Of a stretch of 64,000 bases of DNA, positions 30,630-54,013 are shown in pieces; within the stretch, counting starts at the first letter, position 1, and every line of letters begins with the position of its first letter. Position numbers and translations under genes: made by a program. The notes beneath the pieces are model-generated. The model made no database searches. It was not told where the DNA came from and saw only the letters and a list, made by a program, of their open reading frames with translations. The stretch is from Halomonas sp. M20 (GTDB taxonomy: Bacteria > Pseudomonadota > Gammaproteobacteria > Pseudomonadales > Halomonadaceae). The DNA is taken from positions 372,001-436,000 of the forward strand of contig NZ_JACNMQ010000001.1 in NCBI RefSeq assembly GCF_020622265.1. The letters are read 5' to 3'.

Positions 30630-30644
30630 TTCCGCAGTGAAAAT
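30630..30644. promoter_or_regulatory. Island motif site 1 (upstream of the IclR gene)
   Basis: TTCCGC-AGT-GAAAAT; the left arm is good and the right arm is degenerate. It is 73 bases upstream of the IclR start. Confidence 0.4.
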
Positions 30645-30688
30645 GCCCGCGTCGAGGCGGGCGTAGGGTGAGACTCGATTTTGTCGCT

Positions 30689-31894
30689 TTACTCGAAGCG
30701 CTCGATCACCGCGGCGATACCTTGGCCGACGCCGATGCACATGGTAACCAAGGCATAGCGACCGCCGGTGGCCTCGAGTTGTCGCAATGCGGTCAGTGCC
30801 AGGCGCGCACCCGAGGCGCCTAGTGGGTGTCCAATGGCAATGGCGCCACCATTAGGGTTTAGACGACTGTCGTCTGCGGACAATCCCAGTTGCTTGACGC
30901 AGCCGAGGACTTGCACTGCAAAGGCTTCATTGATTTCGATTAGATCCATCTGCTCCAGTGTCAGGTCAGCGCGGGCCAAGGCCTTCTGGCTGGAGGGGAC
31001 CGGTCCCAATCCCATTACGCGTGGCGGGACCCCGGCCACGGCACCGGAAACGATTCGCCCACGCGGCGTCATACCTGCCTTCTCGCCTGCGGCAAGGCTG
31101 CCGACGATCATCGCTGCGGCACCATCGTTGAGGCCGGAGGCGTTGCCTGCGGAGACCACGCCGTTCTCGAATAGTGACGGCAGGCGGCCGAGCTTCTCGG
31201 CATCGCTACCTGGACGAGGGTGTTCGTCCTGATCCAGCAGCAGGGGTGGCTGCTTGCGGCCTTGTGGCACCTCGACGGGTAACAGCTCGCCAGTGTAGAA
31301 GCCGCGTGCCAGTGCTTCCGCATAGCGTACCTGGGAGCGTGCCGCATAGGCATCGGCAGCGTCGCGACCAATCTCGAGGTCGTGAGCAACGTTATCGGCG
31401 GTTTCAGGCATGCTATGACTGCCATACTCCCTGGCGAGCCAAGGATTGGGAAAGCGCGAGCCGATTACCGTATCGTAGAGGGGTTGGTTACGAGCATAGG
31501 CGGATTCAGCCTTACCTAGCACATAAGGCGCGCGGCTCATGCTTTCCACACCGCCTGCCAGAAATAGCTCACCCTCATTGTTGCGGGTCGCGCGGGCGGC
31601 GTCGAGGATCGCTGCCAGGCCACTGCCGCATAGCCGATTGACGGTCTGTCCGGCGACTTCGATCGGCAAGCCGGCGAGCAAAGCGGCGTGGCGCGCCACA
31701 TTGCGGGAATCCTCACCCGCCTGGTTGGTGCAGCCGGCGAGGACCTCTTCATAGGTCCTGGCGGCAAAGGATGAACGTTCGATGAGATGCTTCAGGGTCA
31801 GCCCCAGCAGATCATCCGGACGCACCCCGGCAAGAGCGCCGCCATGGCGGCCGAAGGGAGTGCGAATACCGTCGTACAGATAAGCGTCTTGCAT
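30689..31894 (-). CDS. Thiolase, beta-ketoadipyl-CoA thiolase (PcaF/PaaJ) type
   Basis: 401 residues. Catalytic cysteine C89 (VNRLCGSG), H356 (GHPLGASG) and C386 (CIGVGQG) are all present. The opening DAYLYDGIRTPFGRHGG is typical of PcaF/PaaJ. It would cleave 3-oxoadipyl-CoA (or longer 3-oxodicarboxyl-CoA) to acetyl-CoA plus the shortened acyl-CoA. It follows the PaaH-like gene by 23 bases on the minus strand, giving the last two beta-oxidation steps as one unit. Confidence 0.9.
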   Translation of the reverse strand: MQDAYLYDGIRTPFGRHGGALAGVRPDDLLGLTLKHLIERSSFAARTYEEVLAGCTNQAGEDSRNVARHAALLAGLPIEVAGQTVNRLCGSGLAAILDAARATRNNEGELFLAGGVESMSRAPYVLGKAESAYARNQPLYDTVIGSRFPNPWLAREYGSHSMPETADNVAHDLEIGRDAADAYAARSQVRYAEALARGFYTGELLPVEVPQGRKQPPLLLDQDEHPRPGSDAEKLGRLPSLFENGVVSAGNASGLNDGAAAMIVGSLAAGEKAGMTPRGRIVSGAVAGVPPRVMGLGPVPSSQKALARADLTLEQMDLIEINEAFAVQVLGCVKQLGLSADDSRLNPNGGAIAIGHPLGASGARLALTALRQLEATGGRYALVTMCIGVGQGIAAVIERFE

Positions 31895-31917
31895 GGTGAA
31901 TCTCCGTTGTCGATTGA

Positions 31918-33435
31918 CTACTGAGCGCTGGTGATGGTCAGGGGCATGTCCAGGCGTGCTCGGCGACGCAACCAGGGACTCGGGCGGTAGCGGGGGTCGC
32001 CGCTAGCAGTCTGTAGGTTTTCTAGAATGGTAAGGATGCGGCGTGCGCCGTAGTGCTCGCCCATAGCCAATGGCCCTTGAGGATAGCCTAGGCCCAGTTC
32101 GACGGCGCGGTCGATGGTGTCGGGCTCGGCGACACGTTGCTGGGCGATGTCGGCGCCGACATTGACGATGCAGGCGGCCACACGTTGTAGCACGAATCCT
32201 GCGCTGTCGTGGATCACGCTGACCGGAGTGCCGTCCTTGGCAAGTAGCGAATGGGCGGCGTCGCGCATGTCGGCACGGGTTGCCGGGCTGGTCATCAGAC
32301 AGCGTCGTTTATCGAGGCCGGCAAGCATGTCGATGGCGACGCAGCGGGCTGGGTCGAGTTGCTGGCGCAGCGCGCTGTCGGTGGTGTCTTCGCCATAGGG
32401 GGTCAGCAGACAAAGTGCGCTGGCGCTGGGGGCATCGCCCGTCTCCAATGTCCAACCGGCGGCCTCGACCACCTCGGCCAGTGCACGATGCGCGTCCGCA
32501 TCCTCGATGCTGATCCAAACCGGTAATGGTTCGCTCGCGGGAGCGGATGGTTCATCGGGTACCACGGCCTGGCCATCGGCGTAGCGATAGAAACCTTCTC
32601 CGCTCTTTCGGCCCAGCAGACCCGCAGCAAGTCGTTGCCCAGTGAGAGCCGAGGGGCGAAAGCGAGGCTCCTGGTAGTACTGGTGATAGATCGACTCCAT
32701 CACCGCGTGAGAGACATCCAGCCCGGTAAGGTCGAGCAGAGTGAAAGGACCCATGCGAAAGCCGCCCTGGTCCTTCAGCAGACGATCGATGGTGACGTGA
32801 TCGGCGACGCCTTCGGAGAGGATGCGCAGCGCCTCGGTACCAAAGGCGCGGCCGGCATGATTGACCAGAAAGCCTGGGGTATCGGTGGCTCGGGCGGTGA
32901 AATGACCGAAGCGCTGGCCTAGCGCTTCGGTGGCTTCGACTACTGCGGTAGCGGTTTTCAGTCCCGGAATGACTTCGACGATCTTCATCAAAGGCACGGG
33001 ATTGAAGAAATGAAAGCCGATTACCCGCTCGGGGTGCTCACAAGCAGCAGCGATCTCGGTAACCGACAGAGAGGAGGTGTTGGTAGCGAGGATGACTCCA
33101 TCACCAAGCACCGTTTCGAGCTGCTTGAAGAGGTCTTGCTTGGCCTCCACGCGCTCAACGATTGCCTCGATCACCAGTTCGCAGTCGGTCATTTCTTCCA
33201 GGTTTGTGGCTTCCAGCAGCAGGGCGCTCATCTCGTCGGCCCGCGCTTGATCGAAGCGCTGCTTCTCGACCCCACGCGCCCAGAGTTTGGCGATGAATGC
33301 CTTGGCCTCATTTATGGCACCGTTACGGGCATCATGTAACTTGACACGTACCCCGGCCTCTGCGGCGATCTGGGCAATCCCGCGTCCCATGGCACCGGTA
33401 CCGACGATGCCTATAGTGGTGATGGTTTGACTCAT
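31918..33435 (-). CDS. paaH: 3-hydroxyacyl-CoA dehydrogenase, PaaH (3-hydroxyadipyl-CoA) type
   Basis: 505 residues from ATG 33435 (in-frame ATG 33495 is less likely). The NAD motif GTGAMG is at residues 12-17 of a Rossmann domain. The catalytic region is FHFFNPVPLMKIVEVI and a second, C-terminal 3HCDH repeat lies around residues 420-490 (HDSAGFVLQRVAACIVN). This two-repeat length is typical of PaaH/PaaC, which oxidises 3-hydroxyadipyl-CoA. Two island motif sites lie in the divergent gap to the acyl-CoA dehydrogenase gene. Confidence 0.88.
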   Translation of the reverse strand: MSQTITTIGIVGTGAMGRGIAQIAAEAGVRVKLHDARNGAINEAKAFIAKLWARGVEKQRFDQARADEMSALLLEATNLEEMTDCELVIEAIVERVEAKQDLFKQLETVLGDGVILATNTSSLSVTEIAAACEHPERVIGFHFFNPVPLMKIVEVIPGLKTATAVVEATEALGQRFGHFTARATDTPGFLVNHAGRAFGTEALRILSEGVADHVTIDRLLKDQGGFRMGPFTLLDLTGLDVSHAVMESIYHQYYQEPRFRPSALTGQRLAAGLLGRKSGEGFYRYADGQAVVPDEPSAPASEPLPVWISIEDADAHRALAEVVEAAGWTLETGDAPSASALCLLTPYGEDTTDSALRQQLDPARCVAIDMLAGLDKRRCLMTSPATRADMRDAAHSLLAKDGTPVSVIHDSAGFVLQRVAACIVNVGADIAQQRVAEPDTIDRAVELGLGYPQGPLAMGEHYGARRILTILENLQTASGDPRYRPSPWLRRRARLDMPLTITSAQ

Positions 33436-33477
33436 GAGCTTTGGCGCCCCCCTGACGAGATACGATAATTTTAGCAG

Positions 33478-33492
33478 TTTCGTATAGCAAAA
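33478..33492. promoter_or_regulatory. Island motif site 2 (paaH side of the divergent gap)
   Basis: TTTCGT-ATA-GCAAAA, imperfect inverted repeat 43 bases upstream of paaH. Confidence 0.5.
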
Positions 33493-33572
33493 CACAGTTC
33501 CGAATATTGACGGTCATCATAGGCTGTGCAACAGTGCATCGCAAGATAACCGAACTTTCGATACTAGTACTG

Positions 33573-33587
33573 TTCCGCATTGCAAAA
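33573..33587. promoter_or_regulatory. Island motif site 3 (acyl-CoA dehydrogenase side of the divergent gap)
   Basis: TTCCGC-ATT-GCAAAA, 84 bases upstream of the acyl-CoA dehydrogenase start. It is 95 bases from site 2 and in the same orientation. Confidence 0.5.
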
Positions 33588-33670
33588 CTAAAGTCTAAGG
33601 CACTGGTTGCCAGCGGCTTTGTAACCCCTTCCAGCATAATCCCGTACAAGACGGCAGCGAGGAAACCGCC

Positions 33671-34822
33671 ATGATTCGCGACCAGGAACTTCTTGATCAG
33701 TTGCTCAATACGCTTTCACGCTTTGTGCGCGAGCGTCTGATTCCCAACGAGGCCCGACTGGCCGAAGAGGATGCGGTGCCTCCGGAGATTCTTGCGGAGA
33801 TGAAGGAAATGGGTTTGTTCGGACTGTCGATCCCTGAGGAATACGGTGGTCTTGGCCTGACCATGGAAGAGGAAGCCTTGGTCGCCATGGAGATTGGCAA
33901 AACCTCACCGGCCTTCCGTTCGGTCTTCGGCACCAATAATGGTATCGGCGCTCAAGGCATTCTTATCGATGGCACCGATGAGCAAAAAAACAAGTATGTA
34001 CCGCGCCTGGCGACCGGTGAAATCATCAGTTCGTTCTGCCTCACCGAGCCAGACTCTGGTTCCGATGCTGCCAGCCTGCGTACCACGGCGATCCGCGATG
34101 GCGATCATTACGTGCTCAACGGCACCAAGCGCTATATCACCAACGGCCCCGAGGCCGACCTGTTCACGGTAATGGCACGTACCGATCCTCAGAACAAGGG
34201 CGCCGGAGGCATCAGTGCCTTCGTCGTCGAGGGTGACACACCGGGCATTCATCGTGGTCCAGCGGATAAGAAAATGGGTCAGAAGGGCGCTCATACCTGC
34301 GACATCATTTTCGACGACTGCCGGGTGCCGGCCGAGAACATCATCGGCGGGCGTGAGGGGCAGGGGTTCAAGACCGCGATGAAGGTGCTAGATCGCGGCC
34401 GTCTGCATATCTCGGCGGTGTGTGTTGGGGTGGCCGAGCGTCTGGTCGAGGAATCGCTGAGCTTTGCTATGGAGCGCCAGCAGTTCGGGTGCGCACTGTC
34501 CGAGCATCAGTTGATCCAGGCGATGCTCGCTGACAGCAAGACCGAAGCCTATGCAGGGCGCACCATGGTCATGGATGCAGCCCGACGCAAGGATGCGGGA
34601 GAGGATGTTTCGACCCTGGCCTCCTGCGCCAAGCTGTTCTGTGCTGAAATGGTCGGTCGTGTAGCTGATCGTGCGGTGCAGATTCATGGCGGCGCGGGCT
34701 ATATGGCCGAATATGCTGTCGAGCGTTTCTATCGTGACGTACGGCTGTTCCGCATCTATGAGGGTACTACCCAGATCCAGCAATTGGTGATCGCTCGCAA
34801 CATGGTTCGGGAGGCTCAGTGA
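33671..34822 (+). CDS. Acyl-CoA dehydrogenase with canonical catalytic glutamate
   Basis: 383 residues, standard ACAD fold. FAD and substrate motifs are CLTEPDSGSDAASL and YITNGPEAD; the catalytic base E364 lies in RIYEGTTQIQ, as in short/medium-chain enzymes. It introduces the 2,3-double bond and passes electrons to ETF. First gene of a plus-strand unit that continues with acyl-CoA synthetase, thioesterase, flavin oxidoreductase and a membrane protein, all overlapping or nearly so. Chain length or dicarboxylate specificity unknown. Confidence 0.9.
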   Translation: MIRDQELLDQLLNTLSRFVRERLIPNEARLAEEDAVPPEILAEMKEMGLFGLSIPEEYGGLGLTMEEEALVAMEIGKTSPAFRSVFGTNNGIGAQGILIDGTDEQKNKYVPRLATGEIISSFCLTEPDSGSDAASLRTTAIRDGDHYVLNGTKRYITNGPEADLFTVMARTDPQNKGAGGISAFVVEGDTPGIHRGPADKKMGQKGAHTCDIIFDDCRVPAENIIGGREGQGFKTAMKVLDRGRLHISAVCVGVAERLVEESLSFAMERQQFGCALSEHQLIQAMLADSKTEAYAGRTMVMDAARRKDAGEDVSTLASCAKLFCAEMVGRVADRAVQIHGGAGYMAEYAVERFYRDVRLFRIYEGTTQIQQLVIARNMVREAQ

Positions 34823-36417
34823 TGGAACTATCTCATCCTTTCAAGGCACCTGATGAGCTGATCAATGGCTGCTGGGCCAGCGAACTAATCGACGAGTTGC
34901 CCGAACGGCTGAGTACCCGGGTACTTGAGCTGGCCAAGCAGCAACCGGACCAGGAAGCCCTTGTCGACGATGAGATGCGCTGGAGCTACTCCGAGTTGGC
35001 GCAAGAGGTGGGCTCGGCCGTTGAATGGCTGGCCTCCTTGGGTGTGCGCCCCGGCGATCGGCTGATGACAGTGAGTGAAAACTGTCGGGCGTTGGTCGTG
35101 TTGCTGCTGGCGGCCAGCGAGATAGATGCCTGGCTGGCGATCGTCAATTCTCGTCTGTCAGCCAAGGAGATCGACCTGATTCAGGCCAATTGCGAGCCAC
35201 GGCGGGTCTTCTATACCTCGGCAGTATCCAAGGAAGCCGCCACCCACGGGGAGCGCCATAGTGCAAAGACGTACCATCATCCGCGTCTCGGTGAACTGAT
35301 GATCGGGCCGCTGACGGATGCTGCGCCGGAGCCGGTTCACGCAAGCGGCGCCGACCAGGTGGCTGCGATGATCTACACCTCGGGTACTACCGGTACCCCT
35401 AAGGGGGTGATGCTGACCCATCGCGGTATTCTATACATTGCCTCGATCTCCGGCGGCATGCGTCACTTGACCCAGGGTCAGCGAGTCTATGGCGTACTGC
35501 CGATGTCCCATGTGTTCGGTTTAGCGTCAGTATGCATGGGTTCGCTATACAACGGTGCCTGTCTCTACCCGGTGCCGCGCTTCGAGGCGCAAGCCCTGGC
35601 CGAAGCGCTGGTCGTCGAACGCATCACTGTGCTCCAGGGCGTGCCAGCGATGTACGCGCGCATGCTCGAATATCTCAAGCAGCGGGACCAGGCGCTTGAA
35701 GCCCCGGCGCTAGTGTATATCTCTGCGGGCGGCTCGCCGCTGGATAGCGACCTCAAGCGTCGCGTAGAAGCCTGCTTCGGTCTGACCCTGCACAACGGAT
35801 ACGGTCTGACCGAGGCCAGTCCGACGATCAGCCAGACGCGCATCGATGACAGCTATGCCAGCACCACCGTCGGTCGTGTGCTTCCGTTGCTCGAGTATCG
35901 TCTTGAACCCTTGGGCAGCACTGACGACGAGGCGCCAGAGACCGGCGAGTTATGGGTGCGTGGGCCTAACGTAATGCGCGGCTACTTTCGTCAGCCTCAA
36001 GCCACTCGGGCCTGTCTAGATGATGATGGCTGGTTGAATACCGGCGACATTGCGCGGGTCGATGACAGCGGCGAGCTGTTCATCGTCGGGCGCAGCAAAG
36101 AGCTGATCATCCGCTCCGGTTTCAACATCTACCCACCGGATGTCGAGGCGGTCATCAACGAGCATCCTGATGTCACCCTCTCGGCGGTGGTCGGACGCCA
36201 GGTATCCGGCAACGAGGAAGTGATCGCCTTCGTCCAGTGCGAGCCCGGCGCCCATTTGACCGAAGAGGCGCTGCGTCAATTCGTGGCCGAACGTCTGGCA
36301 CCCTACAAGCGCCCCAGCCAGATATACCTGGTCGATACGTTGCCGGCCACCGCCACCGGCAAGATCCTGAAAGGCGCGCTTCGTCGCCAGGCCCAGGAGG
36401 ACTATCCGCATGACTGA
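34822..36417 (+). CDS. AMP-forming acyl-CoA synthetase
   Basis: 531 residues, ANL superfamily. P-loop-like motif YTSGTTGTPKGVMLTH, A5 motif YGLTEASP, hinge region GWLNTGDIARVDDSGELF followed by IVGRSKELIIRSGFNIYP, and catalytic lysine in PATATGKILKG. It starts at ATG 34822 inside the preceding stop codon; a GTG at 34819 is also in frame. It activates a carboxylic acid with ATP and CoA. In context the most likely substrate is a medium-chain dicarboxylate or the monoacid for the flanking dehydrogenases. Confidence 0.9.
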   Translation: MELSHPFKAPDELINGCWASELIDELPERLSTRVLELAKQQPDQEALVDDEMRWSYSELAQEVGSAVEWLASLGVRPGDRLMTVSENCRALVVLLLAASEIDAWLAIVNSRLSAKEIDLIQANCEPRRVFYTSAVSKEAATHGERHSAKTYHHPRLGELMIGPLTDAAPEPVHASGADQVAAMIYTSGTTGTPKGVMLTHRGILYIASISGGMRHLTQGQRVYGVLPMSHVFGLASVCMGSLYNGACLYPVPRFEAQALAEALVVERITVLQGVPAMYARMLEYLKQRDQALEAPALVYISAGGSPLDSDLKRRVEACFGLTLHNGYGLTEASPTISQTRIDDSYASTTVGRVLPLLEYRLEPLGSTDDEAPETGELWVRGPNVMRGYFRQPQATRACLDDDGWLNTGDIARVDDSGELFIVGRSKELIIRSGFNIYPPDVEAVINEHPDVTLSAVVGRQVSGNEEVIAFVQCEPGAHLTEEALRQFVAERLAPYKRPSQIYLVDTLPATATGKILKGALRRQAQEDYPHD

Positions 36418-36877
36418 TAGCAGCTTGCCTGTAGAGGGAGCCCCTAGTGTCGTCCAGGAGGAAGACAGTCTCGTGCAGATGGGGTTTCAACGTCTGTTGG
36501 GCATGCGGGTCACCGAGTGGTCGGAGGGTAGAGCAGTGGTCGAACTCACAGTCGAGGATCAGCATCTCAACCGCAGCGGCATCGTACATGGCGGCGTGCT
36601 GACGTCGCTGCTGGATACCGCGTTGAGTCTATCCGGCCTGTATTGCAGCGTGCCAGGAAATGTACGTAAGGGCATGACCTTGTCGCTGACCACCACCTTC
36701 GTGGCTGCGGCTCGGGGCGGTGTACTACGCGCCGTGGGCCATCGTCGCGGTGGTGGCAAGGCGACGTTCATGGCCAGCGGCGAGGTGGTCGACGCGAACG
36801 ATGCTGTCATGGCGATGGGCGAGGGCGCCTTTCGCATACGTAGCGCCAGCCAGACGCCGGAGGGTGAGCCTGCATGA
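36410..36877 (+). CDS. PaaI-type hotdog-fold acyl-CoA thioesterase
   Basis: 155 residues. Hotdog helix motif with SGIVHGGVLTSLLDTALSLS, where the H-G-G and following D/T are the usual PaaI features. It overlaps the synthetase gene by eight bases and the next gene by four. It probably rescues CoA from dead-end thioesters of the pathway. Confidence 0.85.
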   Translation: MTDSSLPVEGAPSVVQEEDSLVQMGFQRLLGMRVTEWSEGRAVVELTVEDQHLNRSGIVHGGVLTSLLDTALSLSGLYCSVPGNVRKGMTLSLTTTFVAAARGGVLRAVGHRRGGGKATFMASGEVVDANDAVMAMGEGAFRIRSASQTPEGEPA

Positions 36878-37881
36878 CGCTGACCACGCCGAAGGATTGG
36901 CGCGACACGCCCCTTTCACGCTTGCTGGGGACCCGGCTACCCATCATGGCCACCGGCTTGCAATGGTTGGCTAATGCCGATTACGTAGCAGCGGCGGTGA
37001 ACAGCGATATGATGGGTTTTATTACCGCCGCAAGCTTTCCTGATACCGCAACCTTGCGTGATGAGATTCAGCGCTGCCGCGAATTGCTGGGTGGACGTTC
37101 TTTCGGCGTCAATGTCTCGATGCTACCCAAGCTGCTGCCTGGTGATCGTACCGAAGAGATCATGGCGCTGATTGCCGACGAGCATATTGCCGTGGTGGAG
37201 ACCTCGGGGCGCGATCCGACCGCCTACGTTGCTGCGCTTAAGGCTAGTGGCTGCCGGGTGGTGCATAAGGTGCCGCAACTGCGTCATGCGCTGAAGGCCG
37301 AGGCCGCCGGTGTGGATGCAGTAACCCTGGTGGGGGCAGAATGTGGTGGCCACCCTGGGGAATCGCCGGTCGGTACGCTGGTCCAGGGGGCACTGGCCGC
37401 CCGGGCATTGACGATCCCCTTTGCCTTGGGGGGCGGCATCGCCTGCGGTGAGCAGATCGTCGCAGCCCTGGCGTTGGGGGCTTCGGGCGTGGCGATCGGC
37501 ACTCGTTTTCTGGTTGCCGACGAGATTCCCGCCCACGTGGACTACAAGCAGCGACTGGTTGAGGCGCAGCCTAGCGACACGACTTTGATCCTGTCGTCGG
37601 TACGCAACTCGATGCGGGTGCTGCGTAACGAGACCACTGCGACGGTGCAGGCCCTTGAAGGCGAAGGCGTCAATGACATTCAGCAGCTGCTGCCCCACGT
37701 ACGTGGCGTCCTGGGCAAGGCCGCCTATGCCAGCGGCGATTGGCGTCAGGGGGCGCTTTCGGCTGGACAAGGAGTGGGTCTGATGACCCGTAGCGCCACG
37801 TTGGTCGAGATCGTTGCCGAACTCGAGCAGGAAGCCGAGAAAGCGTTGGCGCGCCTGGGCATGGGAGGCAATAGGGTGTGA
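36874..37881 (+). CDS. NAD(P)H-dependent flavin oxidoreductase, nitronate-monooxygenase-like
   Basis: 335 residues, FMN TIM-barrel of the 2-nitropropane dioxygenase/NMO superfamily. GAECGGHPGE gives the active-site histidine and the phosphate-binding LGGGIACGEQIVAALALGA lies near residue 190. Superfamily members act as nitronate monooxygenases, quinone reductases or 2-enoyl reductases such as FabK. Overlap (ATGA) with the thioesterase gene argues for a role in the same acyl-CoA pathway, for example reducing an unsaturated acyl-CoA. That is inference. Confidence 0.8.
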   Translation: MTLTTPKDWRDTPLSRLLGTRLPIMATGLQWLANADYVAAAVNSDMMGFITAASFPDTATLRDEIQRCRELLGGRSFGVNVSMLPKLLPGDRTEEIMALIADEHIAVVETSGRDPTAYVAALKASGCRVVHKVPQLRHALKAEAAGVDAVTLVGAECGGHPGESPVGTLVQGALAARALTIPFALGGGIACGEQIVAALALGASGVAIGTRFLVADEIPAHVDYKQRLVEAQPSDTTLILSSVRNSMRVLRNETTATVQALEGEGVNDIQQLLPHVRGVLGKAAYASGDWRQGALSAGQGVGLMTRSATLVEIVAELEQEAEKALARLGMGGNRV

Positions 37882-39266
37882 CGCAACGCGGGGCCGCAAC
37901 GCTACTGGCCGGCACCATGCTGGCGACCCTGATGGGACTAGTGCTGAATAACGCCTGGGCACATGGGCTGGCGAGTATCCTACTGGTCGGTTATCTGCTC
38001 TCGCAGTTTACCCGTCTGTCGTACATGGCGCTGGGGCTGTTGTCTTTCGCGGGAATCACCACGGCGATCGTCCTGTGGCGTATCGAAGCTCCCTGGTCGT
38101 TGCTGAGCGATGCGGTGGGGCGTTTCGCTTTTTTCGCTACCTTTGTCGCTGCTCTCAGCCTGCTGCGATTGCCTGCTTATCGCTCACGCCTAGTGCGCCG
38201 GTGTGGTCATGTGATGCTGCATCAGCCACCGGCGCGGCGCTACCCGATTCTGTCGCTGGGCTCTGGGTTGTTCGGGGTGATCCTCAATATCGGCGTACTC
38301 AATTTGTTTGCCGGAATGATCGAGAAGAGTAACACCCTGGCCGCGGCCAATGGTCGGCAATGGGTGCAGAGAGTGCGTCGTAGACGCATGATGATGGCAC
38401 TATTGCGAGGCTTCTCCCTCGCCCCGCTGATCTCGCCGATGGGGATCGGCGTGGCAGTGATTCTTGCCAGCATGCCATCAGTACTATGGCGGGATCTGGC
38501 GCCTTATGCCTATGGCGCGGCCCTGGTAATCTTCCTGATCGGCTGGCTGGTCGATCAGTTGATCGGTCCGCATCCGCCGCGCCGTGATCCACCCTTGCCG
38601 TCGTCGTCACTACGCCCTCTGGGCAGCTTCTCTTTGCTACTGCTGGGTATAGTGCTGCTAGTGTTTACCTTGGCCTATTTATTGGACGTGCGTTTACCGA
38701 TTGCCACGCTGGTCGGTGCGCCCTTGGCCTCCTGGGCGTGGTTGGCCTGGCAGCGCCGACGCCTAGGCGGGCTTGGAGTGATACCCGCCGCCGTGACCTT
38801 TTACCGGCAACTGCCTTGGTTGCTGGGGCCGCTAAGTAGCGAGGTGGTGGTACTTGGTTCGGCAGGCTATGCAGGGCATCTATGGGTGGCGCTGATCGAT
38901 CCGCAGGCTCTTGCAAACTCGTTGACCTGGCTAGTGCCCCTGGGTGTCTGGAATGCCATCTTCGCGATGCTGCTGGTCTTGATTACGGCACAAGTCGGGC
39001 TCAATCCTATCGTCAGTGTGACTCTACTGGCGGGTCTGTTACCTGCGCTGGATATCCCCGGTCTAACACCACCCTTGATCGGCGTATCGCTGATGGTGGG
39101 CTGGGCGTTGGCGCTGATGTCCTCACCTCTTACTGCGTCAATGTTGATCCTCTCTCGCTTCACCAGGGTGTCCTCGTGGCGGATCGGCTATCGCTGGAAC
39201 GGGCTGTTCATGCTGGGTGTGATTCCGGCAATGACGGCTTGGTTTCTATTAGCAAACAGCATCTAG
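37878..39266 (+). CDS. Polytopic inner-membrane protein of unknown function
   Basis: 462 residues from a GTG overlapping the previous stop by four bases. About eleven to twelve hydrophobic helices, with a central basic loop (VQRVRRRRMMMALLRG) and a proline-rich loop (GPHPPRRDPPLP). SPMGIGVAVILASMPSVLW and the later SPLTASMLILSRF resemble symmetry-related segments of ion-transporter-superfamily carriers, but I do not recognise a family. Being last in an acyl-CoA catabolic operon, a carrier for the organic acid substrate is a reasonable guess. Confidence 0.6.
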   Translation: MTQRGAATLLAGTMLATLMGLVLNNAWAHGLASILLVGYLLSQFTRLSYMALGLLSFAGITTAIVLWRIEAPWSLLSDAVGRFAFFATFVAALSLLRLPAYRSRLVRRCGHVMLHQPPARRYPILSLGSGLFGVILNIGVLNLFAGMIEKSNTLAAANGRQWVQRVRRRRMMMALLRGFSLAPLISPMGIGVAVILASMPSVLWRDLAPYAYGAALVIFLIGWLVDQLIGPHPPRRDPPLPSSSLRPLGSFSLLLLGIVLLVFTLAYLLDVRLPIATLVGAPLASWAWLAWQRRRLGGLGVIPAAVTFYRQLPWLLGPLSSEVVVLGSAGYAGHLWVALIDPQALANSLTWLVPLGVWNAIFAMLLVLITAQVGLNPIVSVTLLAGLLPALDIPGLTPPLIGVSLMVGWALALMSSPLTASMLILSRFTRVSSWRIGYRWNGLFMLGVIPAMTAWFLLANSI

Positions 39267-39420
39267 TGGTGAGTTTTAATTTTACCAGGCGGTTTCGCAT
39301 TACCGCTGAATGAGTCTTGGGCAATCGGACGGCTCTACATCTTTGGTATAGACACGTATCTACGAGCTTGACGCCATGAGCACCGGGACTCTATCGTTTA
39401 TTTTAAATTGCGAAATACTA

Positions 39421-39435
39421 TTCCGCATAGAGAAA
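39421..39435. promoter_or_regulatory. Island motif site 4 (upstream of etfBA)
   Basis: TTCCGC-ATA-GAGAAA, ending 16 bases upstream of the etfB start. A further half-conserved copy (right arm GCGAAA) is at 39401-39415, so a tandem arrangement is possible. Confidence 0.5.
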
Positions 39436-39451
39436 CATGTAGGAGGTGGAC

Positions 39452-40201: not shown

Positions 40202-40215
40202 GAGGAGCTGATTTC

Positions 40216-41154: not shown

Positions 41155-41164
41155 GAAGATCGGG

Positions 41165-43616: not shown

Positions 43617-43658
43617 AGAGAAAACGCCGGTCAGCTCATTCATTCAATGCCCGGCGTT
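43617..43658 (-). terminator. Rho-independent terminator after the ETF-QO gene
   Basis: AACGCCGG and CCGGCGTT arms with a 20-base loop; on the minus strand a TTTTC tail follows. The long loop makes it moderate. Confidence 0.6.
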
Positions 43659-43675
43659 AGCAACGTGCTGACTCC

Positions 43676-45340: not shown

Positions 45341-45388
45341 ACCAACTCCAGGATACTATGAATGACGATCCGCCCCATAAGTGCGGCA

Positions 45389-46513: not shown

Positions 46514-46522
46514 GCCAGCTCC

Positions 46523-47719
46523 TTACATGCCGAGAATTGTCTTGGCGACGATGTTTTTCTGGATTTCGTTGGCGCCGCCATAGATCGACAGCTTACGGCG
46601 ATTGAGATACTGCGCGGTGGCGGCGGCGGCGAATGTCTGGTCGTCGTCGAGAGTATCGTCGTCACCGGCGAGGAAATCGGCGAAGAACGGTAGCGCTTGG
46701 GGGCCGAGGGCGCGTCGGGTCAGGTCGCTCAGGCGCTGGCGCAGCTCCGACCCACGAATCTTTAGCAGTGAGCTTTCCGCCCCTGGGGCGCCACCGTCCC
46801 GGGCGGCAGCCAGTACGCGCAGGTTGGTGACTTCCAGTGCCATCAGCTCGAGTTCGGATCGGGCGATCTGTTCACGAAAGCTTGGTGCCTGGATCAGCGG
46901 GCGGCCACGATGAGTTTGGCGGCGAGCCACGCTCTTGAGGTGGCGCAGAGCCTGCTTGGCGTGACCCAGGCCAGCAATACCGGTGCGTTCGTGGGTGAGC
47001 AGGAACTTGGCGCAGGTCCAGCCTTCGCCTTCTTCGCCGACACGATTGGCAACCGGCACGCGTACGTTGTCGAGGAACACCTCATTGACCTCGTGAGCAC
47101 CGTCGAGGGTGATGATCGGGCGCACGCTGATGCCCCGAGTATTCATGTCGATCAACAGGAAGCTGATGCCGGCCTGCTTCTTGGCCTGAGGATCGGTGCG
47201 GGCCAGGCAGAACATCATGTTGGCGTGCTGGCCCAGAGTGGTCCAGGTCTTCTGGCCATTGACGATGTAGTGATCACCGTCACGTTCGGCGCGAGTTTTG
47301 AGGCTAGCCAGATCCGAGCCGGCGCCGGGTTCGGAATAGCCCTGACACCACCAGTCGTCGTTGCCGAGAATGCGTGGCAGGTAATGACGCTTCTGCTCCT
47401 CGCTGCCGAAACGGATGATCACCGGCGCGACCATGTTGACACCGAACGGCACCACCGTGGGGGCATGCGCCGCGGCACACTCTTCCTCGAAGATATGTTT
47501 CTCGACCGGGCTCCAGCCGGTACCGCCGTGTTCCACCGGCCAGCCGGGTGCCAACCAGCCGCGTTCGCTGAGGAGGTTCTGCCAACGCACATGTTCTTCG
47601 GCATTGAGCTGCTGACCGAACCGCACCTTACGCTGAATATCGGCGGGGAGCTTGTCGGCAAGAAAGGCACGCACCTCCTCGCGGAAGGTGTTTTCTTCTG
47701 GGGTGAATTGTAGGTTCAT
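46523..47719 (-). CDS. Acyl-CoA dehydrogenase, large-subunit (PimC-like) type
   Basis: 398 residues. Long N-terminal helical part with GWLAPGWPVEHGGTGW, then GYSEPGAGSDLASLKT and YIVNGQKTWTT. The C-terminal segment is SIYGGANEIQKNIVAKTILG, where glycine replaces the glutamate of YEGT-type enzymes. This architecture matches PimC and related large subunits. Start ATG 47719 follows CGAGGTAA. Probably partners 45389-46513. Confidence 0.87.
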   Translation of the reverse strand: MNLQFTPEENTFREEVRAFLADKLPADIQRKVRFGQQLNAEEHVRWQNLLSERGWLAPGWPVEHGGTGWSPVEKHIFEEECAAAHAPTVVPFGVNMVAPVIIRFGSEEQKRHYLPRILGNDDWWCQGYSEPGAGSDLASLKTRAERDGDHYIVNGQKTWTTLGQHANMMFCLARTDPQAKKQAGISFLLIDMNTRGISVRPIITLDGAHEVNEVFLDNVRVPVANRVGEEGEGWTCAKFLLTHERTGIAGLGHAKQALRHLKSVARRQTHRGRPLIQAPSFREQIARSELELMALEVTNLRVLAAARDGGAPGAESSLLKIRGSELRQRLSDLTRRALGPQALPFFADFLAGDDDTLDDDQTFAAAATAQYLNRRKLSIYGGANEIQKNIVAKTILGM

Positions 47720-47746
47720 GATTACCTCGAGGAAAAAGAGCGCAGC

Positions 47747-49342
<1,596 letters not shown>

Positions 49343-49422
49343 CCGAAACATCTCCGTGTGGGCGGAAGTTGAAAACCATGATGCGGGGGCGGGCAAGATC
49401 GGTCAAGTATTTTGGAATTGAA

Positions 49423-49437
49423 TTTCGCAAAGCAAAA
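49423..49437. promoter_or_regulatory. Island motif site 6 (upstream of the FadJ-like unit)
   Basis: TTTCGC-AAA-GCAAAA, one of the best matches to the cluster motif; 81 bases upstream of the FadJ-like start. Confidence 0.5.
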
Positions 49438-49459
49438 TTGGCGCATAAAGAAGATGGAA

Positions 49460-49485
49460 CGAAAAAGGTCACCCGAAGGTGACCT
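49460..49485 (-). terminator. Rho-independent terminator of the TAXI transporter operon
   Basis: Eight-base stem AGGTCACC / GGTGACCT with a C(TTCG)G tetraloop on the minus strand, followed by TTTTTC. Confidence 0.88.
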
Positions 49486-49516
49486 ATGTTAGTGCTTCAC
49501 GTCGATCAATCGAGGT

Positions 49517-50662
49517 TTAAAACACTGGCTGCATTCCGGCCGCTTTCAGTGCCTTGGCGCGCGCCTCTAGCCACCCTTGACGAAAGGCTTCCTCGTCATC
49601 TGGTGCCGAGATGACGTAATCGCCCCAGGTCTCGGCGAGGAGCTGTTGTCGCTTCAACAGCTGATCCTGATGCGCCTGCATTTCTTCGGTCCAAATGCCC
49701 GCTTCGCGGTAGTAATCGACGACTGCCTCATGGAAGGGGATGACCCAAGTCATGTTCTGGTTCTCGACGGCGTAGCCGGCGGCGCCCGGAGCGGCATCCT
49801 TGTAGCGATCATAGTCCTCGACCAGGGTCTTGATCAGACCGTAGGCGGTGTCATGCTCGAGGTCGGCGTTGGCGACCATGATCGGGTAGGGGTAACTGGC
49901 GCTGTGGTAACCATCCTCGGGAATACCGGCGCCGGCGGTGACTTCATGAGGCTGGAAGTAGGGGGCAACGGCCTTCATGCGCTCCCAGGCAGCGCGGTCG
50001 TCACGGGGCAGTTGGGGCCATTGTATGCCCCGAGGGCTAGCCGCCAAGCGCTGGGCGGCGGGGGTCACGGTAGTGGTAATCGCGGCATCGGCGCGCCCGC
50101 TTATGATGCCATCGAAGGCACTGTTGTACCCCGGGAAGATGACCTTCTCGACGTCGTTCCAATCCAGTCCGCCAAAGGCCAGATAGGCTTCGGCGGCCTT
50201 GTTGAGGGCATCGTCGCCCCGGAGATAGGCGACTCTCTTGCCCTTGAGATCCGCGGGGGTCTCGACTTCCACATCGCCGGCCACCGCCATGCCCAGCCCG
50301 AACGAGGCCAAGGAGGTGCTGATCACCCGAATCGGCTGCGGCCCCCAGCCAGGACCGGCGAACATCATTACCCCTTCAGAGCCGTAATAACTTGCGATAC
50401 CGCAGGCGCAAAGATCGACACGACCGGTCTTCAGCGGCGTCATGCGCAAAATGTCGTTCTCGCCGGGAATGACCCGGAACTGGGTGCCGCTGCGCTGCTG
50501 AATGATTTGGCCGATGGCCATGATCTGGGCATGCCCGCTGGTGCCGGTGCCATAGGCGGTCCAGTTCAGCGTTTCCGGCATCTCGGCATTGGCTAGCGGA
50601 GTGATCGCGAGCGCGCCGAACAGTGCACCGGCCGTAAGGGGTAAACGAATCTGACGTAGCAT
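49517..50662 (-). CDS. TAXI-family TRAP transporter solute-binding protein 1
   Basis: 381 residues from ATG 50662 (AGGAGCCCTCC upstream). Signal peptide to PLANA-EM. TAXI-domain features are TGTSGHAQIMAIGQII, MTPLKTGRVDLCACG, YPYPIMVANADL and WVIPFHEAVVDYYREAG. It lies downstream of the fused permease gene on the same strand and is strikingly similar to the second binding protein at 52805-53968 over the whole length. Ligands of TAXI receptors include glutamate and 2-oxoglutarate-like acids; here a dicarboxylate is likely. Confidence 0.9.
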   Translation of the reverse strand: MLRQIRLPLTAGALFGALAITPLANAEMPETLNWTAYGTGTSGHAQIMAIGQIIQQRSGTQFRVIPGENDILRMTPLKTGRVDLCACGIASYYGSEGVMMFAGPGWGPQPIRVISTSLASFGLGMAVAGDVEVETPADLKGKRVAYLRGDDALNKAAEAYLAFGGLDWNDVEKVIFPGYNSAFDGIISGRADAAITTTVTPAAQRLAASPRGIQWPQLPRDDRAAWERMKAVAPYFQPHEVTAGAGIPEDGYHSASYPYPIMVANADLEHDTAYGLIKTLVEDYDRYKDAAPGAAGYAVENQNMTWVIPFHEAVVDYYREAGIWTEEMQAHQDQLLKRQQLLAETWGDYVISAPDDEEAFRQGWLEARAKALKAAGMQPVF

Positions 50663-50725
50663 GGAGGGCTCCTGAGTATTGTTGTTGAAAAGGCACCGAA
50701 CGCGCATGCTCGGCGCTGGACGAGG

Positions 50726-52735
50726 TCAGTGCGGCGTTATGCCGTTGCGTGGGATGGCACGGTGCTGACTCCATCGAGCGAGCAGGATCGCCGGTATACC
50801 GGTGGCCAGTCCAACACTGAGCAGCTCCAGGTTGCTGAAGGGGATTGGTTTGCCGCCGGGCAGCGCGACACAGAAGCCGGCGATCAGCACCAGGGTGCGA
50901 ATGATTACTTCCATGGCAGGGGTATGGCCGAGACGCCCCACCCCAATCAGGTAGCCCTGCATGGCTGAGGCGAACAGCACGATGCCAAGCACGGCCTGAC
51001 AGAACACCAGAATGATACCGATAGGACTGCCCTGCATGATCAGCGCTGGATTAAGCACGAACATGAAGGGGATGAAATAGATAACGCTGCCTAGGCGCAT
51101 GGCCTGGAGGCCGGTTTCCATCGGTCGGGCGCCGGCCACGGTAGCGGCGGCGAAGGCTCCCAAGGCGACCGGCGGAGTGATGAAACTGAGCATGCCCCAG
51201 TAGAGGATGAACATGTGCACGGCCATGGGATCGAGGCCGCCACCTTGGGTCAGCGCCGGCGCCAGAGCCACCGCCAGGAAGATATAGGCGGCGGTCACCG
51301 TCATCCCGATACCCAGCACGAAGCTGGTCAGCGCGCCCATGACGAGTAGCAACGGCACGCTACCACCTGCCAGATGAATGAAATCGTTGGCGATGGTGCC
51401 CGACAGCCCGGTCATCGACAGCGCACCGACCAGCATGCCGACGCCGGCGAGAATGGCGATCAACTCAGCGAACAGCTTGGCGGCGGCATTGAGGGTGTCG
51501 GTGACATTCTTCCAGCCCCAGCGGTGCGACTTGGAGAGCTGATTGATCACTAGTAGCAAGGCAGTAGCATAGAATGGCGCCACCGCCTCACGCTGCATTA
51601 CCAACAGCATCCAGACCAGCAGCACGAAGACGAAGATGAAGTACCAGCCTTCTTTCAAGGTCTGCTTGACCGAAGGCAGCTCGAGCTTGGGCAGGCCCTT
51701 GATGTTATTACGGGCGGCATAAGCATCGATCTGAATGAACAGGCCCAGGAAATACAGTACCGAGGGGATGACGGCGGCCAGGGCCACGGCAGCGTAGGGT
51801 ACGTCGAGAAACATTGCCATGATAAAGGCGGTGGCCCCCATTACCGGTGGCATCAGCACCCCGCCTGTCGAGGCGCAGGCTTCTACACCGCCGGCGAATG
51901 AACGGCTCATGCCGATACGCCGCATGGCGGGGATCGACAGGACCCCAGTGGTCAACACGTTGGTGATCACACTCCCGCTCATCGATCCCATCAGGCCACT
52001 GGCGAAGATCGACACCTTGGCGGGTCCTCCGCGTACGTGCCCCAGCAAGGAGAAGGCGAGATTGATGAAAAAGGCGCCACCTCCTGTCTTCTGTAATACC
52101 ACCCCGAAGATGAGAAAGCCGATCACTAGGCTGGCGAAGGCCTGCAGCGGTACGCCCATGATGCTTTCAGTACTCATGGTGTGGTAGATAGCGGTCTGCT
52201 CGAGTGTCGATGGAAACGCCTGGATCGGCCCCGGCATGATGTCGGCGACCATCGGATAGCAGGAGAACAGTGCAACGATCAAGGCAATGGGCCAACCTCC
52301 GGCGCGGCGTGCAGCCTCGAGAATCAGCAACCAGTAGGCGTAGCTGAACCATACCGCCGGCTCGGGGGCAGCGAAGGCCCAGCCGCGTTCGAGGATCGAT
52401 TCGGCCTGGAAAACGAAATAGCCGCCGACGATGGCGGTAACGATAAACAAGAGGTAGTCGTACCAAGGCACCGGCTTGCTCTGCCCCGAGGGAAACATCG
52501 GCCAGAGCAGAAAGACCAGAGGTAGCAACAGGGCTACCACGGCGTAGTAGAACTGGGTTTCTAGGCCGGTAACGAAAGTCAGCCAGCCCAGGTTGAAGAG
52601 ATAGTCCAGCGTCATCAAGGTGAGCAGAACGGTGACGGTACCTGGGAGCCAGCGCAGCGCGCGGGGCAGGGACCGCACTTTTGATACCTGCTCTTTTGCG
52701 GCGCCGACATCCTCTTGTTGACTGGCCTGATTCAT
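50726..52735 (-). CDS. TRAP transporter fused DctQ-DctM permease (TAXI type)
   Basis: 669 residues, about 17-18 membrane helices: a four-helix small subunit joined to a twelve-helix large subunit. The DctM signature segments include GVVLQKTGGGAFFINLAFSL, then VSIFASGLMGSMSGSVITNV and ASTGGVLMPPVMGATAFIMA. It imports the ligand of the TAXI binding proteins with Na+ (or H+). Operon order on the minus strand is binding protein 2, permease, binding protein 1. Confidence 0.93.
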   Translation of the reverse strand: MNQASQQEDVGAAKEQVSKVRSLPRALRWLPGTVTVLLTLMTLDYLFNLGWLTFVTGLETQFYYAVVALLLPLVFLLWPMFPSGQSKPVPWYDYLLFIVTAIVGGYFVFQAESILERGWAFAAPEPAVWFSYAYWLLILEAARRAGGWPIALIVALFSCYPMVADIMPGPIQAFPSTLEQTAIYHTMSTESIMGVPLQAFASLVIGFLIFGVVLQKTGGGAFFINLAFSLLGHVRGGPAKVSIFASGLMGSMSGSVITNVLTTGVLSIPAMRRIGMSRSFAGGVEACASTGGVLMPPVMGATAFIMAMFLDVPYAAVALAAVIPSVLYFLGLFIQIDAYAARNNIKGLPKLELPSVKQTLKEGWYFIFVFVLLVWMLLVMQREAVAPFYATALLLVINQLSKSHRWGWKNVTDTLNAAAKLFAELIAILAGVGMLVGALSMTGLSGTIANDFIHLAGGSVPLLLVMGALTSFVLGIGMTVTAAYIFLAVALAPALTQGGGLDPMAVHMFILYWGMLSFITPPVALGAFAAATVAGARPMETGLQAMRLGSVIYFIPFMFVLNPALIMQGSPIGIILVFCQAVLGIVLFASAMQGYLIGVGRLGHTPAMEVIIRTLVLIAGFCVALPGGKPIPFSNLELLSVGLATGIPAILLARWSQHRAIPRNGITPH

Positions 52736-52769
52736 GGCGGGGATCCGGAGTTGGGCATGGCGGAATCGC

Positions 52770-52797
52770 CGGCGTCCACTTTACGCAGTGGACGCCG
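52770..52797 (-). other. Intercistronic hairpin between binding protein 2 and the permease
   Basis: 11-base perfect stem CGGCGTCCACT / AGTGGACGCCG with a six-base loop and no T-run. It would reduce read-through or stabilise the upstream receptor mRNA, keeping the receptor in excess over the permease. Confidence 0.55.
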
Positions 52798-52804
52798 ACA
52801 GGGA

Positions 52805-53968
52805 TCACTTGAAGATAGGTTCGAAGCCGGCCTCGCGAAGGGCTGAAGCGCGGGTTTGCATCCAGGCGTCGCGGAAGGCATCTTCATCTTCCGGGGTCTC
52901 GCCTGTGGTGAACTCCTTCCAGGTATCGAGTAGCAGGTTCTGGCGTTCTACAAGCTTGTCCTGATGAGCCTGCATTTCCTCGGTCCATACGCCGGTTTCC
53001 TTGTAATAGTCGACGACCGCTTCGTGAAATGGGATGACCCAGGTCAGATCCTGATTCTCCAATGCGTAGCCTGCCGCACCCGGAGCGTTGTCCTTATAGG
53101 CGTCGTAGTTATCCTGTAGCGCCTTGATCAAACCATAGGCGGTGGTGTCCTCGAGATCGGCATTGGCAACGATGATCGGATAAGGATAGCTGGCACTGTT
53201 GACCGGGTTCTCGGCGGAAACGCCGCCTGCTCCAGCGGTGACCTCATGGGGTCGGAAATAAGGAGCGATTTTCTGCATACGTTGCCAGGCGGCTTCGTCG
53301 TTGGGATCTAGCGCCGGCCAGCTGATACCACGCGGACTGCTGGCCAATTGCTGAGCCGGTGGTGTCACCGTGGTAGTAAAAGAGGCGTCCGCCTCACCGG
53401 AGATAATGCCGTCGAACGAACGCGCATACCCAGGATAGTCGACCCGTTCAACGTCATCCCAGGTCAGGCCGCCAAAGGCGAGGTAGGCTTCGGTGCCCTT
53501 GTTGAGGGCATCATCACCGCGGATGTAAGCGATGCGCTTACCTTTCAGGTCTGCTGGCGTCTTGACGTCCAGGTCTCCGGCCACGGCTAGCGAAAGGCCA
53601 AAAGAGGCGGTCGAGGTGGTTAGTACGCGCAGTGGCTGTGGGCCCCAGTCGGGATGAGCGAACATCAGAACGCCCTCGGCTCCGTAGTAGCTGGCGATAC
53701 CGCAGGCGCATAGGTCGACACGTCCTGTCTTTAGCGGAGTCATGCGCGATACATCGTTATCGCCAGGCAGTACACGCACTGCAGTGTCGTATTGTTTCTG
53801 AAGCATGCCACCAATGGCCACGGCCTGCGCATAACCACTGGAGTTGGTGCCGTAGGCAGTCCAGGCCATGGTGTTAGGGAGTTCGACCTCCTTGGCAAGG
53901 GTCGCTCCAGGAAGAGCAAGAGTGAGCGGGAGTGAAGCAAACAGCACTTGGCGGACTAGATAATGCAT
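52805..53968 (-). CDS. TAXI-family TRAP transporter solute-binding protein 2
   Basis: 387 residues from ATG 53968 (GAGGAAACC upstream); an in-frame ATG at 54049 has no signal peptide. Signal ends GATLA-KE. It shares long identical blocks with binding protein 1 (KTGRVDLCACGIASYYG, then ADLKGKR and RGDDALNK, then EAVVDYY), so the two are paralogues. It leads the operon, and motif site 7 lies just upstream. Confidence 0.9.
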   Translation of the reverse strand: MHYLVRQVLFASLPLTLALPGATLAKEVELPNTMAWTAYGTNSSGYAQAVAIGGMLQKQYDTAVRVLPGDNDVSRMTPLKTGRVDLCACGIASYYGAEGVLMFAHPDWGPQPLRVLTTSTASFGLSLAVAGDLDVKTPADLKGKRIAYIRGDDALNKGTEAYLAFGGLTWDDVERVDYPGYARSFDGIISGEADASFTTTVTPPAQQLASSPRGISWPALDPNDEAAWQRMQKIAPYFRPHEVTAGAGGVSAENPVNSASYPYPIIVANADLEDTTAYGLIKALQDNYDAYKDNAPGAAGYALENQDLTWVIPFHEAVVDYYKETGVWTEEMQAHQDKLVERQNLLLDTWKEFTTGETPEDEDAFRDAWMQTRASALREAGFEPIFK

Positions 53969-53998
53969 AAGGTTTCCTCGGCTGTATGAGCCTTTTTG

Positions 53999-54013
53999 TT
54001 TTGCTATGCGGTA
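53999..54013. promoter_or_regulatory. Island motif site 7 (upstream of the TAXI operon)
   Basis: On the minus strand TACCGC-ATA-GCAAAA, starting 31 bases upstream of binding protein 2. Confidence 0.5.

What the first reader, a model, noticed from the sequence alone, without database searches (positions are those of the whole stretch)
30630..54013. Seven copies of an inverted repeat, TTYCGC-N3-GCRAAA, in front of the island's transcription units
Sites: 30630-30644 (iclR), 33478-33492 and 33573-33587 (paaH / acyl-CoA dehydrogenase divergent gap), 39421-39435 (etfBA), 41313-41327 (porin), 49423-49437 (FadJ-like unit) and 53999-54013 (TAXI transporter). Nearly all are within about 30-160 bases of a start codon. 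The resident IclR-family regulator (29742-30557) is the natural candidate, with autoregulation, making one regulon for uptake, activation, beta-oxidation and electron transfer. I did not scan the rest of the window exhaustively.
Basis: partly seen in the sequence, partly recalled or inferred. Interest (0 to 1): 0.75.

Follow-up and report, generated by a model that had tools for sequence, protein, structure and literature searches.

The report
IclR regulon for an acyl-CoA island
Short mirror-image DNA signals in front of an acid-degradation gene island are real and shared by related salt-loving bacteria, and they are very likely the docking sites of the island's own switch protein, which makes this an ordinary but well-defined new gene-control circuit.

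Summary
The motif is real at six of seven sites. A matrix trained on relatives' sites ranks five reported sites as the five best positions in the window and the porin site sixth. The iclR site ranks 13th; it is the tail of the thiolase terminator and is kept in 1 of 50 relatives, so autoregulation through it is not supported. Among 56 Halomonadaceae loci the motif is in 50 of 50 paaH/dehydrogenase gaps in view (two or more copies in 49) and 33 of 34 memb-etfB gaps, and before 18 of 18 TAXI operons fetched. Sites fit the published IclR group 1 operator, most with a third half-site at a fixed 5-bp gap, as in PcaU-type operators. Among 196 genomes, IclR ortholog and dehydrogenase gene are both present in 21 and both absent in 174. 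The bare consensus is not enriched genome-wide. The island looks like dicarboxylate beta-oxidation. Operators lie just downstream of good promoters and upstream of two poor ones, so a regulator that both represses and activates is preferred but unproven. Verdict: a solid new regulon of a known kind.

The parts
29742..30557 (-). IclR-family regulator, the predicted binder
   Evidence: Pfam HTH_IclR and IclR_C above cut-off; nearest named model TIGR02431 PcaR/PcaU/PobR, far below its cut-off
30630..30644 (.). Reported iclR site: rejected as operator; tail of the thiolase terminator
   Evidence: rank 13 in the window; directly follows the stem 30662-30645 on the - strand; 1 of 50 gaps of relatives has a site
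30645..30662 (-). Intrinsic terminator stem-loop of the thiolase unit
   Evidence: hairpin also in the fold (z only -0.85)
33478..33503 (-). paaH operator: palindrome 33478-33492, third half-site 33498-33503
   Evidence: GRAA/GRAC at the third-box offset in 46 of 49 unique sites, window included
33507..33544 (.). Two overlapping opposed promoters: acd1 (+) TTGACG-N17-AACAGT 33507-33535; paaH (-) TTGCGA-N17-TATGAT 33544-33516
   Evidence: read by eye from the sequence; conserved core in the alignment of 50 gaps, window included
33573..33587 (+). acd1 operator palindrome, 95 bp from the paaH operator (82-85 bp in 46 of 49 relatives' gaps, 94-95 in 3). Its third half-site is uncertain here: the relatives' one (33550-33555) is displaced by a 12-bp insertion; the three-box matrix reads one on the gene side (33593-33598)
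39368..39397 (+). etfBA promoter TTGACG-N18-TATCGT
   Evidence: read by eye; same arrangement in the relatives printed
39410..39435 (+). etfB operator: third half-site GCGAAA 39410-39415, palindrome 39421-39435
   Evidence: 33 of 34 memb-etfB gaps in relatives, one of them (L061) with the site beyond an inserted gene; third box in 31 of 37 unique sites
41313..41327 (+). Porin operator (probable)
   Evidence: rank 6 in the window; palindrome kept in G006 and G012
49412..49437 (-). echL operator: palindrome 49423-49437, third half-site 49412-49417 on the promoter side
   Evidence: rank 1; mirror-image third box in 9 of 10 unique sites
49378..49406 (-). echL promoter TTGACC-N17-CATCAT
   Evidence: read by eye; CATCAT or CATGAT at the same place in relatives with this promoter
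53999..54024 (-). TAXI operator: palindrome 53999-54013, third half-site GTGAAA 54019-54024
   Evidence: site before 18 of 18 TAXI operons in fetched stretches; identical 15-mer in 16 of 196 genomes, all with an IclR match; third box in 11 of 19 unique sites
54036..54065 (-). TAXI promoter TTGACA-N18-TACTAT
   Evidence: read by eye; conserved in the relatives
30689..54049 (.). Regulated island: thiolase-paaH; acd1-acs-hotdog-fabK-memb; etfBA; porin; ech, etfqo, acd2, acd3, echL; TAXI/TRAP genes
   Evidence: Pfam and NCBIfam; memb has no Pfam match

Best explanation
The sites are operators of the IclR-family protein encoded at 29742-30557, a regulator resembling PcaR/PcaU/PobR. A typical operator is a three-box element: a TTYYGC-N3-GCRRAA palindrome for one dimer, plus a third alternating half-site at a fixed 5-bp gap. 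The regulator ties together uptake (TAXI/TRAP transporter, DcaP-like porin), CoA activation, beta-oxidation and electron transfer (ETF) for what is probably a medium-chain dicarboxylic acid. Inferred, not shown: it represses TAXI, etfBA and paaH by covering roughly +6 to +35 just downstream of good promoters. It can activate echL, and acd1 through the paaH-side operator, from just upstream of the -35 box of promoters with poor -10 boxes. An intermediate of the pathway would be the effector. iclR itself is expressed without this operator. The confidence below is for IclR as binder of one regulon; for the dual mode it is about 0.45.
For: Out-of-sample matrix ranks. In the 56 named loci 117 perfect sites against 1 for the reversed pattern, 110 of the 117 at assigned operators. 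Sites in 50 of 50 paaH/acd1 gaps, 33 of 34 memb-etfB gaps and before 18 of 18 fetched TAXI operons. The motif fits IclR group 1 subgroup WTTYCRYW3RYGRAAW, and three-box sites are described for 32 IclR groups (PMC8222616). Third box at a single fixed offset in 122 of 163 unique sites. Regulator and acd1 ortholog both present in 21 and both absent in 174 of 196 genomes. Exact TAXI operator in 16 of 22 genomes with the regulator and 0 of 174 without. Recognition-helix segment identical in 53 of 64 rows. IclR homologs of 41-42% identity in another family keep the PTVSR residues and have motif sites around differently arranged acyl-CoA clusters.
Against: No binding or expression data. Genomes lacking the regulator also lack the acd1 ortholog, so co-occurrence alone cannot single out IclR. 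The perfect symmetric consensus is no commoner genome-wide than its control (6 against 6; 145 against 156 at 1 mismatch), and 28 of 100 family genomes without the regulator have at least one strict site. Modicisalibacter muralis (G010) keeps a perfect site although its only IclR match lacks the DNA-binding domain. G162, with a 58% ortholog, has no site in the 19 kb read around that gene. L063, L064 and L106, with 70-73% orthologs, show no site in the part in view, which includes distant TAXI homologs. Homologs of 39-40% beside an acd1 homolog (L049, L051, L052, L054, and 15 kb in L199) have none. Repression versus activation is read only from site position.
Confidence: 0.87

Rival explanations
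1. The sites belong to another regulator (for example a TetR-type fatty-acid regulator such as PsrA) encoded elsewhere, and IclR only happens to be next door.
For: Several TetR and GntR regulators of fatty-acid genes bind short palindromes (recalled). The IclR gene itself has no conserved operator. The site persists in a genome whose IclR match lacks the DNA-binding domain.
Against: Motif class and third box are described IclR features; IclR was the only regulator found among the 20 proteins scanned; regulator and acd1 ortholog occur together in 21 of 22 genomes; distant IclR homologs also have nearby sites.
Confidence: 0.08
2. IclR is a pure repressor at all sites, and the upstream sites at echL and acd1 act by looping or by steric block.
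For: In 49 gaps of relatives the two divergent-gap sites are 82-85 or 94-95 bp apart, near 8 or 9 helical turns; four of the five solid sites (paaH, acd1, etfB, TAXI) lie downstream of their own promoter (promoters read by eye).
Against: The echL and acd1 promoters have poor -10 boxes (CATCAT/CATGAT, AAAAGT or AACAGT), which suggests that they need an activator. The spacing may simply follow from the conserved promoter core.
Confidence: 0.4
3. The palindromes are chance or compositional.
For: No genome-wide enrichment of the consensus (6 against 6; 145 against 156).
Against: Out-of-sample ranks 1-5 in the window; 117 against 1 perfect sites in relatives' loci; positions kept over large divergence.
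Confidence: 0.02

Closest known systems
IclR-family group 1 operators, subgroup WTTYCRYW3RYGRAAW (Suvorova and Gelfand 2021, PMC8222616; abstract, passages and sections 13, 14, 15, 19, 22 read)
   Same: Half-sites, A/T-rich 3-bp centre and alternating third box as described for three-box groups.
   Different: The two divergent-gap sites lie 82-85 or 94-95 bp apart, not the usual 18-22; whether this orthologous group is in their collection could not be checked (supplements not available here).
PcaU / PcaR / PobR regulators of the beta-ketoadipate pathway (TIGR02431)
   Same: Best-scoring NCBIfam model; three-box motifs reported for PcaU, PobR and HmgR (PMC8222616, passage).
   Different: Score 139.4 bits against a cut-off of 284.75, so not a member; the targets here are acyl-CoA beta-oxidation genes and a TAXI transporter.
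dca cluster of Acinetobacter baylyi with IclR-type DcaR and DcaS (PMC4213383, passages and section 27 read)
   Same: IclR-type regulator listed next to dcaF, dcaH and dcaC; the porin here is DcaP-like.
   Different: That paper calls the function of these regulators unknown and names no operator for DcaR or DcaS in the section read; here a TAXI/TRAP transporter and etfBA carry the sites. Gene order was not compared.
IclR-family protein of PDB entry 5whm
   Same: Closest solved chain, E 1.2e-71 over residues 15-264.
   Different: Listed only as an IclR family transcriptional regulator; I saw no organism, operator or function for it.

Membership tests
IclR transcription factor family | HTH_IclR plus IclR_C domains | tested here: met
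   58.9 and 75.5 bits against cut-offs of 22 and 24
IclR group 1 (WTT-11-AAW) operator | TTYCRY-W3-RYGRAA palindrome | tested here: met
   Five strong window sites and relatives' sites, with deviations: many halves read TTTT or TTCT instead of TTYC, the etfB site has GAGAAA, the TAXI site has TACCGC
IclR three-box operator | Third half-site of alternating direction at a fixed distance | tested here: met
   GRAA/GRAC at one offset: paaH 46 of 49, etfB 31 of 37, TAXI 11 of 19, acd1 25 of 48; echL mirror offset 9 of 10, echL chosen as perfect palindromes. In the window's acd1 site it is displaced; not seen for the porin site
IclR tandem operators | Two palindromes 18-22 bp apart | tested here: not met
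   82-85 or 94-95 bp in 49 gaps of relatives, 95 in the window; the 39401 hit 20 bp from 39421 contains its third box
PcaR/PcaU/PobR subfamily (TIGR02431) | Score above the curated cut-off | tested here: not met
   139.4 against 284.75 bits
IclR regulator with autoregulation | Operator in front of its own gene | tested here: not met
   1 of 50 thiolase-iclR gaps at 1 mismatch or better
IclR regulator of these genes | Direct binding and effect on expression | not testable with these tools
   needs gel shift and knockout

The most novel reading that the evidence does not exclude
One IclR protein is a position-coded dual switch. At paaH/acd1, two opposed promoters overlap over the same ~38 bp, so only one polymerase can load at a time. 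Regulator dimers on operators about 8 or 9 helical turns apart decide which way it faces, each repressing the promoter that reads into its site and activating the other.
Probability: 0.25. Interest if true: 0.6.

Novelty: new member of a known kind. Interest (0 to 1): 0.4.

Why it matters
It gives a well-bounded, testable regulon for a catabolic island whose regulator and key dehydrogenase occur together in 21 of 196 genomes examined. It offers a regulator-plus-operator pair that could serve as a sensor for what are probably dicarboxylic acids. The face-to-face promoter pair with an operator on each side is a clean system for asking how an IclR protein both represses and activates.

Tried and rejected
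Rejected: the iclR site as operator (terminator, 1 of 50). Rejected: 39401/39421 as a tandem pair; the conserved part of 39401 is the third half-site of 39421. Rejected as evidence: the 2-mismatch consensus count in the window and the consensus counts in the genome, none above control. Set aside: the two other strict A/T-centre hits in the own genome, C7:99581 and C7:660317; both lie inside open reading frames, the second in a hemA-like frame (my reading of the translation). Looping as the main mechanism is kept only as a rival: 46 of 49 spacings are 82-85 and the 94-95 class is confined to three loci of the window's genus (and the window), so it may be one insertion event. Not run: a matrix scan of the whole genome. 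Rows left out: in the echL comparison L188 (rearranged) and L191 (a longer fadJ-type gene); in the site collection TAXI homologs under 65% identity, gaps with one site only, and echL sites that are not perfect; one search left out L056-L058, L098, L172, L186-L188 and the window as the genus, but whether L059 and L109 (87-88% IclR) belong to it was not checked. Literature: search listings are capped (searches listed 10-15 papers each; one search found 0); in those listings I saw no paper on this regulon. PMC12543098 was read as passages only; PMC4213383 as passages and section 27; PMC8222616 as named above; all others only as listings.

Full report
Observation. The seven 15-mers exist at the stated places, but only two match the stated consensus exactly, and at two mismatches the consensus is close to chance in the window (29 against 20.6 expected). 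A leave-one-out matrix separated five sites (ranks 3-5) from two (ranks 38 and 58). The non-circular test is: a matrix built from 70 distinct sites of relatives, the window and its known same-genus loci left out, ranks the echL, acd1, paaH, TAXI and etfB sites 1 to 5 among all positions of the window, the porin site 6 and the iclR site 13. A 26-bp three-box matrix gives the five 25.9 to 32.5 bits; apart from overlapping reads of these same operators, the best other position scores 7.1. One caution: the acd1 site reaches 30.2 only when read with its third box on the gene side, and 2.6 when read with it on the side used in relatives.

The iclR site is something else. On the minus strand the thiolase unit ends with a G+C-rich stem-loop (30662-30645) followed directly by ATTTTCACTG (the fold itself is not unusually stable, z -0.85); the reported site 30630-30644 is that tail. 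In 50 thiolase-iclR gaps only one (L058) has a site at one mismatch or better. So this gene has no conserved operator of this kind.

Conservation. The only genome-contig scan gave 56 loci of Halomonas, Modicisalibacter, Salinicola, Billgrantia and Vreelandella. The order iclR, thiolase, paaH, divergent acd1, acs, thioesterase, membrane protein, etfBA is widely kept. In 50 of 56 loci the paaH/acd1 gap was in view: all 50 hold at least one site at one mismatch or better, 49 hold two or more (L078 has one). Of 34 memb-etfB gaps in view, 33 have a site (not L100); in L061 the site lies beyond an inserted gene, so 32 are directly in front of etfB. The 56 loci (1.1 Mb) contain 117 perfect TTYYGC-N3-GCRRAA sites against 1 for the reversed pattern; 110 of the 117 are assigned operators. 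These loci are related, so the counts are not independent events.

I fetched 20 further stretches. All 18 that contain a TAXI operon start have a site in front of it, in 14 exactly TACCGCATAGCAAAA. Distant TAXI homologs in L063, L064 and L106 (37-39% for the binding protein) have none in view. The echL unit is instructive. Measured between protein-match ends, where the gap to the upstream gene is 168 bp or more (8 fetched stretches) a perfect site is present, as in the window (174 bp); where echL follows within 95 bp (10 stretches) there is no perfect site in the gap, though one of them, L176, has a one-mismatch site at the gene start. The other two stretches are L191, with a different fadJ-type gene, and L188, rearranged, where a perfect site lies directly before echL. 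In short, the operator stays where a separate promoter is needed. For the porin, the site in the two other genomes of the genus that I read is TATTGC-AAA-GCAATA or TATCGC-AAA-GCAATA.

Anatomy. Aligning sites by promoter shows a third half-site at one fixed offset, 5 bp from the palindrome: GRAA/GRAC on the left in 46 of 49 paaH, 31 of 37 etfB, 11 of 19 TAXI and 25 of 48 acd1 unique sites, and its mirror image on the right in 9 of 10 echL sites, the window's sites included. In the window's acd1 operator the half-site CCGAAC lies 12 bp further away than in relatives, because of an insertion seen in the alignment.

Promoters, read by eye and supported by conservation: TAXI TTGACA-N18-TACTAT, etfB TTGACG-N18-TATCGT, paaH TTGCGA-N17-TATGAT, each followed directly by its operator; echL TTGACC-N17-CATCAT with the operator just upstream of -35; acd1 TTGACG-N17-AACAGT with the paaH operator just upstream of -35 and its own operator downstream. 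The paaH and acd1 promoters overlap face to face in a core that is at least as conserved as the operators. The two operators lie 82-85 bp apart in 46 of 49 gaps of relatives and 94-95 bp in 3; in the window it is 95.

Who binds. (i) The motif is the IclR group 1 subgroup WTTYCRYW3RYGRAAW, and three-box sites are described for 32 IclR groups (PMC8222616). (ii) Among 196 genomes, 22 have an IclR match of 57% or more (in G010 and G023 partial or in two pieces); 21 of these have the acd1 ortholog (82% or more), the exception being G010; none of the other 174 has an acd1 match that high, though seven have homologs of 60-70%. The exact TAXI operator is in 16 of the 22 and 0 of the 174. The strict A/T-centre motif averages 2.7 per genome in 21 family genomes with the regulator against 0.32 in 100 without, 28 of which have at least one. 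These tallies are not independent, because relatives share history and because genomes without the regulator also lack the cluster. (iii) The recognition-helix segment IPRPTVSRLTYT is identical in 53 of 64 rows, two of which lack the region. (iv) In two genomes of another family (G179, G139) IclR homologs of 41-42% keep PTVSR and lie in a differently arranged fadJ/thiolase/dehydrogenase neighbourhood with 2 and 3 sites at one mismatch or better, 1 and 2 of them perfect, in 11 and 13 kb; at the own genome's rates (145 and 6 places in 3.9 Mb) about 0.4-0.5 and 0.02 would be expected. (v) No other regulator was found among the 20 proteins of the region scanned.

Against. M. muralis (G010) has lost the IclR DNA-binding domain in its only match but keeps a perfect site before echL. 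The 58% ortholog of G162 has no site in the 19 kb read around it, although the acd1/thiolase gap of that genome has a one-mismatch site. L063, L064 and L106 show no site in view, but their paaH upstream gaps lie beyond the fetched part. IclR homologs of 39-40% in four genomes (L049, L051, L052, L054) have no site within the 3.7-3.8 kb held, nor has 15 kb around one of them (L199).

What is regulated. Thiolase passes the PRK08131 3-oxoadipyl-CoA thiolase cut-off (651.9 against 622) and the hydroxyacyl-CoA dehydrogenase passes PRK08268. acd3 and acd2 score best with PimC and PimD, below cut-off. The porin passes the DcaP model. TAXI and TRAP subunits pass their cut-offs. Next to iclR lie genes for GlaH and L-2-hydroxyglutarate oxidase of glutarate use, both above cut-off. 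A medium-chain dicarboxylic acid is therefore the likely substrate; this is inference.

Mechanism. Shown: conserved operators, their three-box form, their places. Inferred: IclR binds them; it represses where it covers the start region and may activate where it abuts -35 of promoters with poor -10 boxes; an acid or its CoA ester is the effector. IclR proteins are said to act as activators, repressors or both (PMC12543098, passage read).

Novelty. A new regulon of a known kind. The overlapping opposed promoters flanked by two operators are the least ordinary part.

Noticed in passing
27443-29676: Genes scoring above cut-off as glutarate dioxygenase GlaH and L-2-hydroxyglutarate oxidase lie beside iclR, fitting a dicarboxylate island; in front of them the matrix finds only a low-scoring A/T run at 27366 (6.0 bits).
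   Followed up: partly
L098 / L188 (G010, Modicisalibacter muralis): The 5' part of the thiolase gene appears to be joined to iclR from about codon 79, leaving IclR without its DNA-binding domain, while a perfect operator before echL persists.
   Followed up: partly
L048, L055 (G023): The iclR ortholog is matched in two overlapping pieces in different frames (residues 9-111 and 87-267), perhaps a broken gene or a sequencing error, in a genome that still has the exact TAXI operator.
   Followed up: no
L176 / L198 (G088): A porin gene (77% to the window's) and a dehydrogenase (32%) beside an ETF-QO gene (77%) each have a perfect motif site in front; this genome has the most strict sites, 7, of those with the regulator.
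   Followed up: partly
L179, L180, L184: Three genomes of one genus have a second motif site 96-97 bp upstream of the TAXI operator, a spacing like that of the divergent gap in the window.
   Followed up: no
L057, L058, L062 and others: Several draft contigs of relatives end within etfB, possibly because of a second near-identical etfBA copy.
   Followed up: no
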